Shown piece by piece: positions 18,148 through 33,160 of a stretch of 64,000 nt of DNA. A model generated the notes under the pieces. The model was not told the origin of the DNA. It was given only the letters and a program-made list of their open reading frames with translations, and made no database searches. Origin of the DNA: Natrinema sp. CBA1119 (GTDB lineage: Archaea; Halobacteriota; Halobacteria; Halobacteriales; Natrialbaceae); NCBI RefSeq assembly GCF_002572525.1, contig NZ_PDBS01000001.1:1116001-1180000 (forward strand), in the 5' to 3' direction. How positions within the stretch are numbered: the stretch's first letter is position 1; each line of letters starts with the position of its first letter. A program made the translations under genes and the position numbers.

Positions 18148-18219
18148 GTCCGGGTGCGAGAATCGAACTGCGCGTCTCAGCCGGACGGGCTGAAGGATAA
18201 CCACTACCCCAACCCGGAC
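18148..18219 (-). tRNA. tRNA-like sequence, Asp(GTC)-like anticodon, probably degenerate
   Basis: A 7-bp acceptor (GTCCGGG/CCCGGAC), a D arm and a T loop TTCGATT are present. The anticodon arm is abnormal: stem TCAGC/GCTGA leaves loop CCGTCCG with C instead of U at position 33, or a 6-bp stem leaves only 5 nt. The T stem pairs fully only if one extra C is bulged out. Either a tRNA pseudogene or a gene with sequence errors. If read literally the anticodon is GTC (Asp), but the body is unlike the haloarchaeal tRNA-Asp I know and closer to an Arg-type body. Confidence 0.5.
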
Positions 18220-18443
18220 ACGTCGCGTCTTTCGACACGACCCGCTACCACGGTGGACACGTAATACGTACTGATAGTCTGCATCGATTGCGACTCGAGG
18301 ACGGATTTTTGTCGCCGCGGGCACGTGGGCCGGTCCGAGAGCGCTACGTTCAAGTGCGACCGGAAGATAGCCTTGGATGACGCAGCGCGTCGGTAGTGAG
18401 ACGCAAGAAGTCCGTCGAATTACGGCGCGCAAGCGGATGACGT

Positions 18444-18509
18444 GCGCCGGTGGTGAGCAGTTCCTCCGGAACTGCGAGCCTCGGCGCGCGAGGAGTGTAG
18501 TGGCACAGT
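18444..18509 (+). repeat. tRNA-Gly 5'-end hairpin unit A
   Basis: Begins with a copy of the first 11 nt of the downstream tRNA-Gly (GCGCCGGTGGT), then GAGCA. An inner perfect stem GCAGTTCC/GGAACTGC with 3-nt loop TCC is enclosed by an outer stem GCGCCG/CGGCGC. A more decayed relative (GCGTCGGTAGTGAGA) lies just upstream near 18,387. Confidence 0.7.
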
Positions 18510-18572
18510 GCGCCGGTGGTGAGCAAATCCGCAGGATTTGCGATCCTCGGCGCGAGCGAACGAAGTGAGCGA
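18510..18572 (+). repeat. tRNA-Gly 5'-end hairpin unit B
   Basis: Same plan as unit A: tRNA-Gly 5' end copy, then inner stem GCAAATCC/GGATTTGC with loop GCA, then CCTCGGCGC closing the outer stem. The inner stem differs from unit A at two positions on each side, and both changes keep base pairing. Ends with GCGAACGAAGTGAGC immediately before the tRNA. Confidence 0.7.
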
Positions 18573-18643
18573 GCGCCGGTGGTCCAGTGGTAGGACTCGA
18601 GCTTCCCAAGCTCGCGGCCCGGGTTCAATTCCCGGCCGGCGCA
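18573..18643 (+). tRNA. tRNA-Gly(CCC)
   Basis: 71-nt cloverleaf: acceptor GCGCCGG/CCGGCGC, anticodon stem CGAGC/GCTCG with loop TTCCCAA (anticodon CCC), T stem CCGGG/CCCGG with loop TTCAATT, discriminator A. No intron. It is flanked on the 5' side by two hairpin units that copy its 5' end and on the 3' side by a unit that copies its 3' end. Confidence 0.95.
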
Positions 18644-18683
18644 TCCCGTCGTAAGCAAACTGCGAGCGACTGGTGCGCCACGA

Positions 18684-18768
18684 GGGAATCGAATCACGCG
18701 AGACGGAGCCCGCACAGCGGAGCGAGCAGGAACGTCTCGCCATCGGGTTCAATTCCCGGCCGGCGCAT
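18684..18768 (+). repeat. tRNA-Gly 3'-end hairpin unit
   Basis: A 25-bp exact copy of the tRNA 3' end (18744-18768, matching 18620-18644) is preceded by an inverted partner of its T arm (GGGAATCGAA, 18684-18693; 9 of 10 pair). An inner perfect 8-bp stem lies between them (GCGAGACG 18698-18705 / CGTCTCGC 18733-18740). Same architecture as the units after tRNA-Ile. Confidence 0.75.
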
Positions 18769-32884: not shown

Positions 32885-32929
32885 TACTTTTGCCGCGAGC
32901 AATCTCGCGAGCCGCAAATATGGAACCCG

Positions 32930-33022
32930 ACTCGGATTTGAATTACGGAAGTCGCAGCCCGGGAGCGAACGAAGTGAGCGACCCGGAACGTCTTCCGGTG
33001 GTTCAAATCCGAGTTGGCCCAT
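32930..33022 (+). repeat. tRNA-Ile 3'-end hairpin unit 1
   Basis: Outer stem ACTCGGATTTGAA (32930-32942) pairs over 13 bp with TTCAAATCCGAGT (33002-33014), which is part of a 23-nt exact copy of the tRNA 3' end (33000-33022). Inside are stems GGAAG/CTTCC (32947/32992) and CCGGG/CCCGG (32959/32982) around a GCGAACGAAGTGAGC loop. Confidence 0.8.
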
Positions 33023-33075
33023 TTTTGCTGCGAACAATGCGAACGTAGTGAGCCGTGAGCAGTGGAAATACAATC

Positions 33076-33160
33076 AACTCGGATTTGAGCCCTGGCAGTC
33101 GCAGCTGGTGAACGAAGTGAACCAGACCGTCTGCCTCTGGTTCAAATCCGAGTTGGCCCA
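33076..33160 (+). repeat. tRNA-Ile 3'-end hairpin unit 2
   Basis: Outer stem AACTCGGATTTGA (33076-33088) pairs with TCAAATCCGAGTT (33142-33154) in a second copy of the tRNA 3' end (33139-33160). The inner stems are GGCAG/CTGCC and CTGGT/ACCAG around GAACGAAGTGA. Each inner stem differs from unit 1 by paired changes that keep complementarity. Copies of the tRNA tail are 137 and 139 bp apart. The rest of 32885-33275 has no gene. Confidence 0.8.

What the first reader, a model, noticed from the sequence alone, without database searches (positions are those of the whole stretch)
18444..18572. 5' end of tRNA-Gly copied upstream in nested hairpins with compensatory changes
Two units of 66 and 63 nt start with the tRNA 5' end. 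Their inner stems are GCAGTTCC/GGAACTGC and GCAAATCC/GGATTTGC: two positions differ on each side, always keeping pairs. An outer GCGCCG/CGGCGC stem encloses them. Compensation suggests selection for the hairpin in RNA or single-stranded DNA.
Basis: partly seen in the sequence, partly recalled or inferred. Interest (0 to 1): 0.7.

Follow-up and report, generated by a model that had tools for sequence, protein, structure and literature searches.

The report
Hairpin mini-elements at haloarchaeal tRNA ends
In salt-loving archaea, short hairpin-shaped DNA elements sit against the ends of tRNA genes, each starting with a copy of that tRNA's own end, and relatives also occur in frame inside protein genes; this looks like a class-wide family of tiny mobile palindromes rather than a tRNA-specific regulatory RNA.

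Summary
Two 44-nt hairpins (18444-18487, 18510-18553) plus a decayed third (18387-18428) lie between a conserved promoter-like block and tRNA-Gly(CCC). Covariation holds in 40 distinct family units (49 double-changed cells against 15.3 in shuffles, 0/500). A model finds the hairpin in 166 of 292 genomes of the class; in a phylum sample all 11 matching genomes belong to the same order. Units precede tRNA-Gly, -Gln(TTG) and -Thr(CGT); 27 of 34 informative units match their own tRNA better than the consensus Gly end.

The RNA reading is weakened. The same hairpin also lies downstream of Gly, Arg, Ala, Pro and Ser tRNAs, always on the opposite strand (62 upstream/same, 14 downstream/opposite, 0 otherwise). 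Copies also lie in frame inside protein genes; one gene shows empty, one-unit and multi-unit (51 nt) alleles in a single genus. Inner stems are almost purely Watson-Crick and change in blocks. About a third of this genome's tRNA genes also carry a downstream copy of their own 3' end in a similar unit.

Best reading: target-matched palindromic mini-elements (resembling Rickettsia palindromic elements or BIMEs), with stems kept perfect by DNA template switching. The mobilising enzyme is unknown.

The parts
18342..18355 (+). conserved promoter-like block CGCTACGTTCAAGT of the tRNA-Gly gene
   Evidence: 39-58 nt before the tRNA in most unit-free genomes, about 100-125 nt in most genomes with one unit, 167-183 nt (two at 229-234) with two, 210-234 nt with three
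18387..18443 (+). oldest, decayed unit (hairpin core 18387-18428, GCGTCGGTAGTGAGACG...GTCGAATTACGGCGC)
   Evidence: model R1, 23.5 bits, E 0.004 over 145 kb; its stem no longer folds significantly (z -1.5)
18444..18509 (+). unit 1: copy of tRNA 5' end, inner stem GCAGTTCC/GGAACTGC, 3' arm CGGCGC, spacer
   Evidence: R1 69.1 bits
18510..18572 (+). unit 2: copy of tRNA 5' end, inner stem GCAAATCC/GGATTTGC, 3' arm CGGCGC, spacer hairpin GAGCGAACGAAGTGAGCGA
   Evidence: R1 72.3 bits
18548..18579 (+). spacer hairpin: unit 3' arm CGGCGC, tandem-GA stem, tRNA 5' strand GCGCCGG (alternative pairing partner of the tRNA acceptor)
   Evidence: Sequence; appears in the minimum-energy RNA fold; as DNA alone it is weak in this energy model (z -1.4)
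18573..18643 (+). tRNA-Gly(CCC) gene
18644..18768 (+). downstream unit: hairpin, inverted near-copy of T-arm GAGGGAATCGAATC (18682-18695), second hairpin, exact 25-nt copy of the tRNA 3' end (18744-18768)
   Evidence: among the same-genus loci read it is seen only in this genome and G073
32885..33160 (+). two tandem downstream units of tRNA-Ile(GAT): inverted copies 32930-32942 and 33075-33088, direct copies 33000-33021 and 33139-33160

Best explanation
The units are members of a haloarchaeal family of palindromic mini-elements of about 51-68 bp with the layout A-H-A'-S-A: A is 8-12 nt of target sequence repeated on both sides, H a hairpin (commonly GTGAGC...GCGAWC), A' the complement of A, S a second hairpin with tandem GA mismatches. 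They enter preferred sites, above all the ends of tRNA genes, reading into the gene from either side, and also protein genes, in frame. Once present they multiply in tandem by recombination between the repeated A's, and their stems are kept perfect, and in step with the tRNA end, by intrastrand template switching (quasi-palindrome correction) during DNA replication; compensatory changes therefore need no RNA function. Shown: anatomy, covariation, class-wide spread, mirrored orientation, empty, single and tandem alleles at one protein gene. Inferred: mobility as single-stranded DNA, the template-switch step, absence of an RNA role. Unknown: the enzyme.
For: Mirrored strand: 62 upstream/same strand, 14 downstream/opposite, 0 other. 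In-frame copies in protein genes; at a DHH/RecJ-like gene 29 same-genus genomes show empty sites (stretch of 31-33 codons), one unit (46-51 codons) and three units (84 codons), each full unit of 51 nt lying between repeats of GAYGGYGG. Unit number 0-4 at tRNA-Gly, varying within the genus. Arms follow the local tRNA end in 27 of 34 informative units. Covariation. Inner stems of 102 distinct units: 780 Watson-Crick, 8 wobble, 28 mismatched cells; the variable 4-nt block jumps between AAAT, AGTT, GATT, AAAC, GAAC and GGTT with its partner matching in 93 of 102 and single-step intermediates rare. Template switching is documented to create and repair stems in this way (PMC8794818).
Against: No transposase or recombinase has been tied to the elements. 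Insertion was seen as presence/absence between species, not strains. Upstream units are transcribed-side hairpins with near-perfect stems, which RNA selection would also keep. Inner blocks may change by whole-hairpin replacement rather than template switching; the two were not separated. The six in-frame protein-gene copies I read all lie on the coding strand, which a purely strand-blind process would not require.
Confidence: 0.6

Rival explanations
1. RNA processing elements: each upstream unit mimics an acceptor stem (7 pairs, bulged U at position 8, coaxial helix), a minimal RNase P type substrate or decoy in the pre-tRNA leader; stems are kept by selection on RNA.
For: Units lie between promoter-like block and tRNA; the 5' arm equals the tRNA acceptor strand and a U is bulged at position 8; minimum-energy RNA fold lets unit and tRNA strands exchange partners. 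tRNA-like elements of Haloferax volcanii are reported (Holzle et al. 2012, listed among the references of PMC7714728); that RNase P and tRNase Z cut them, and that a bulge at this place helps eukaryotic-type RNase P, is from memory.
Against: Downstream copies are on the opposite strand and protein-gene copies have no tRNA. Units have no T-arm or D-arm and are not found by ARAGORN or Rfam. Unit-free genomes are common.
Confidence: 0.15
2. Remnants or cassettes of tyrosine recombinase integration: repeated tRNA ends are att sites, and the folded A/A' stem of single-stranded DNA imitates the double-stranded tRNA end, as attC does in integrons.
For: Direct repeats of tRNA ends bound each unit; tRNA genes, mostly 3' ends and rarely 5' halves, are usual archaeal integrase targets (PMC8371274); stem with a bulge, variable inner hairpin and strand polarity resemble attC (from memory).
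Against: Units carry no integrase or cargo; integrase att repeats do not explain the internal complement A' nor the GAYGGYGG sites in protein genes.
Confidence: 0.15
3. Pure mutational products: repeated fold-back template switches at tRNA ends build the units, with no mobile element; shared hairpin sequence reflects fold preference and recombination between arrays.
For: Alternating A and A' are what two successive fold-backs would give; perfect stems; PMC8794818.
Against: The H sequence GTGAGC...GCGAWC is shared across tRNAs, protein genes and many genera, which needs transfer or a common source.
Confidence: 0.1

Closest known systems
Rickettsia palindromic elements (RPE)
   Same: Small palindromes found in frame inside many unrelated protein genes (described in PMC10969869)
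   Different: Units here are 51-68 nt rather than about 150 bp, arms match the target, arrays are tandem, and the main sites are tRNA gene ends; host is a class of archaea
REP/BIME and REPINs of bacteria
   Same: Mosaic arrays of alternating palindromes, probably handled as single-stranded DNA (papers listed)
   Different: No RAYT partner known here; arms are specific to each tRNA; sits at tRNA ends and in genes
Haloquadratum PATEs and small mobile repeats (PMC3119063)
   Same: Haloarchaeal transposase-free palindromic mobile repeats; mobilisation of the SMRs (about 110 bp) is called enigmatic there
   Different: PATEs and SMRs are reported without target duplication, and SMR-A elements target other mobile elements; the units here have a repeated A and target tRNA ends
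t-elements of Haloferax volcanii
   Same: tRNA-like features in haloarchaeal precursors
   Different: t-elements are tRNA-like folds (from memory); units here imitate only the acceptor strand and a long helix
E. coli tyrT 3' repeats (rtT; from memory)
   Same: Tandem repeats after a tRNA gene each holding a copy of its 3' end
   Different: One locus in E. coli, no internal inverted copy recalled; here about a third of tRNA genes in one genome

Membership tests
Rickettsia palindromic elements | palindromic, stem-forming repeat | tested here: met
Rickettsia palindromic elements | in-frame insertion in unrelated protein genes with intact reading | tested here: met
Rickettsia palindromic elements | sequence relation to the RPE families | not tested
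   No RPE sequences were compared
REP/BIME | palindromes in alternating arrays | tested here: met
   A-H-A'-S-A arrays
REP/BIME | GTAG or CGTC foot tag and a RAYT transposase | tested here: inconclusive
   Element core begins GTGAGC; a CGTC occurs in the protein-gene type; no transposase search was made
MITE | direct target repeats at both ends | tested here: met
   GAYGGYGG and tRNA-end repeats
MITE | terminal inverted repeats of a known transposon | not tested
   No transposon end was compared
Integrase att remnant | repeat of tRNA end restoring the gene | tested here: met
Integrase att remnant | integrase gene or cargo between the repeats | tested here: not met
   Repeat spacing of 53-160 nt leaves no room for a gene
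t-element / RNase P substrate | tRNA-like fold recognised by tRNA models | tested here: not met
   Units not found by ARAGORN or Rfam RF00005
t-element / RNase P substrate | same strand as the transcript at all sites | tested here: not met
   Downstream copies on the opposite strand
t-element / RNase P substrate | cleavage by RNase P at the unit start | not testable with these tools
   Needs RNA 5'-end data or an in vitro assay

The most novel reading that the evidence does not exclude
A single-stranded DNA recombination system of haloarchaea in which folded hairpin sites rebuild the double-stranded end of a tRNA gene (A/A' stem), so that one enzyme recognises hairpin and gene end alike and adds or removes units of about 60 nt, as integron integrases do with attC sites.
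Probability: 0.15. Interest if true: 0.85.

Novelty: new variant of a known kind. Interest (0 to 1): 0.62.

Why it matters
A class-wide family of very small palindromes that carries the sequence of its own target and decorates tRNA genes on both sides would be a clean natural case for how hairpins arise, spread and stay perfect: it helps separate covariation caused by RNA selection from covariation caused by DNA template switching, a confusion that can affect any covariation-based claim of a new RNA. It also puts varying hairpin arrays into pre-tRNA leaders and adds 17-codon inserts to conserved proteins.

Tried and rejected
Rfam at gathering threshold found only the three tRNAs. A pure RNA-leader function was set aside after the strand test. 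A kink-turn reading of the GA pairs was set aside by inspection: the internal loop lacks the 3-nt asymmetry. A recent one-off duplication was rejected: units are in 52 of 77 genera sampled. Chance was rejected for 3'-end copies: 16 of 47 own-genome tRNAs have a copy of 16 nt or more of their own 3' end within 300 nt, against 4 of 2152 mismatched pairings. Literature searches found no report of these units, but subscription papers are not held. A regex parse of arms failed and was redone with model hits.

Full report
Observation. tRNA-Gly(CCC) lies at 18573-18643. Unit 1 is 18444-18509, unit 2 18510-18572; each 44-nt hairpin core is GCGCCGGTGGTGA-stem-loop-stem-GAKCCTCGGCGC. A decayed third unit precedes them (18387-18428). 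The spacer after unit 2 is itself a hairpin that pairs the unit's CGGCGC with the tRNA's own GCGCCG through tandem GA mismatches. The array therefore alternates A-H-A'-S-A-H-A'-S-A(tRNA), and in the predicted RNA fold the copies of A exchange partners.

Within this genome. tRNA-Gln(TTG) at C1:600014 has three 65-nt units with the same inner hairpin but arms made from its own 5' end, AGTCCCGTG/CACGGGGCT; the third has a changed but still paired inner stem. ARAGORN labels this intron-containing tRNA as Glu; I read it as Gln(TTG) from the sequence, and close relatives are called Gln(TTG) (L184, L194). On the 3' side, 16 of 47 tRNA genes have a copy of at least 16 nt of their own 3' end within 300 nt (other tRNAs: 4 of 2152). 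Between tRNA and copy lie a hairpin, usually an inverted copy of the T-arm, and a second hairpin.

Across genomes. The tRNA-Gly locus was found in 122 of 125 family genomes. In the 70 loci read unit number runs from 0 to 4, and each unit adds roughly 55-68 nt between a conserved promoter-like block and the tRNA. Forty distinct 44-nt units give 89.6% paired cells, nine pairs with changes on both sides and 49 doubly changed cells; shuffles give 15.3, none of 500 reaches the observed value, and sliding the partner destroys the signal. A covariance model (R1) hits 166 of 292 genomes of the class, 52 of 77 genera. In a phylum sample of 148 genomes, all 11 with a match belong to the same order.

Arms follow the tRNA. 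Where the local tRNA end departs from GCGCCGG (GCACCGG, GCGGCGG, GCGCTGG, GTGCCGG, AGTCCCG and others) the arm is closer to the local tRNA in 27 of 34 units, tied in 4, worse in 3. Exceptions are informative: in L137, L170, L172 and L175 internal arms differ from the tRNA, but the 3' arm of one unit still pairs with the 5' arm of the next.

Strand test. Among 78 model hits, 62 are upstream on the tRNA strand and 14 downstream on the opposite strand; none is upstream/opposite or downstream/same; two lie more than 1 kb away. Weak second hits on the reverse strand of the same palindrome were left out. Downstream copies start with the reverse complement of the tRNA 3' end, for example TGCGCCGGCCGGGA-GTGAGC...GCGAAC. 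The element thus reads into the gene from either side. In the transcript a downstream copy would have its GA mismatches turned into UC mismatches, so selection for one RNA structure does not explain both positions.

Protein genes. Further own-genome hits lie inside genes, in frame, including a DHH/RecJ-like gene, a tryptophanyl-tRNA synthetase and a purC-like gene (names from my reading of the translations, not from a family search). In the DHH gene across 29 same-genus genomes the site is empty (ADGGT or similar), or carries one unit (51 nt when complete), or three. Two clades carry different inner hairpins at the same site. This is the best evidence that units are insertions.

How stems change. 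In 102 distinct 44-nt units the inner stem has 780 Watson-Crick, 8 wobble and 28 mismatched cells. The variable four-base block takes many states, its partner matching in 93 of 102, and states two steps apart (AAAT, AGTT, GATT) are common while intermediates are rare. Part of this set was collected by a model that rewards pairing, which biases the counts. The pattern fits template switching or whole-hairpin replacement better than one-base-at-a-time RNA compensation; template switching is documented to create and maintain perfect stems (PMC8794818).

Verdict. The structure and its covariation are real. The most economical account is a DNA-level family of target-matched palindromic mini-elements. 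It works like Rickettsia palindromic elements and BIMEs; membership in either is not shown. An RNA role upstream of tRNAs is not excluded as a secondary effect. The mobilising enzyme and the step that copies the target into A' are inferred, not shown.

Noticed in passing
18148-18220 (-): Degenerate tRNA, 5' half matching tRNA-His of this genome (TCCGGGTTGGGGTAGTGGTTATCC) but with a broken T-stem; not called by ARAGORN. Similar fragments sit near the tRNA-Gly gene in some relatives (L092, L113, L123).
   Followed up: partly
L070, L075, L080: Further tRNA-Gly copies downstream of the intact gene are interrupted after about position 9-11 by a hairpin (GCGCCGGTGctgag...ggaagTCTAGTGG); could be pseudogenes or unusual intron-like inserts.
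   Followed up: no
L236-L265 (own genome C1:1395478-1396269): In-frame 51-nt palindromic units in a DHH/RecJ-like gene: empty, single and triple alleles in one genus, encoding DGGE...RSDGG inserts of 17 codons each.
   Followed up: yes
own-genome 3' flanks of tRNA-Phe, -Lys, -Ser(TGA), -Met (L023, L021, L044, L037): The downstream copies of the tRNA 3' end carry a one-base insertion in the T-loop motif (GTTCAcAATC, GTTCAtAATC, GTTCAaAATC, GTTaCGAATC) in four different tRNAs; reason unknown.
   Followed up: no
window 18554-18572 and many places genome-wide: The mini-palindrome GAGCGAACGAAGTGAGCGAG, a GAA triloop with tandem GA mismatches, recurs at dozens of places in the genome, not only at tRNAs.
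   Followed up: partly
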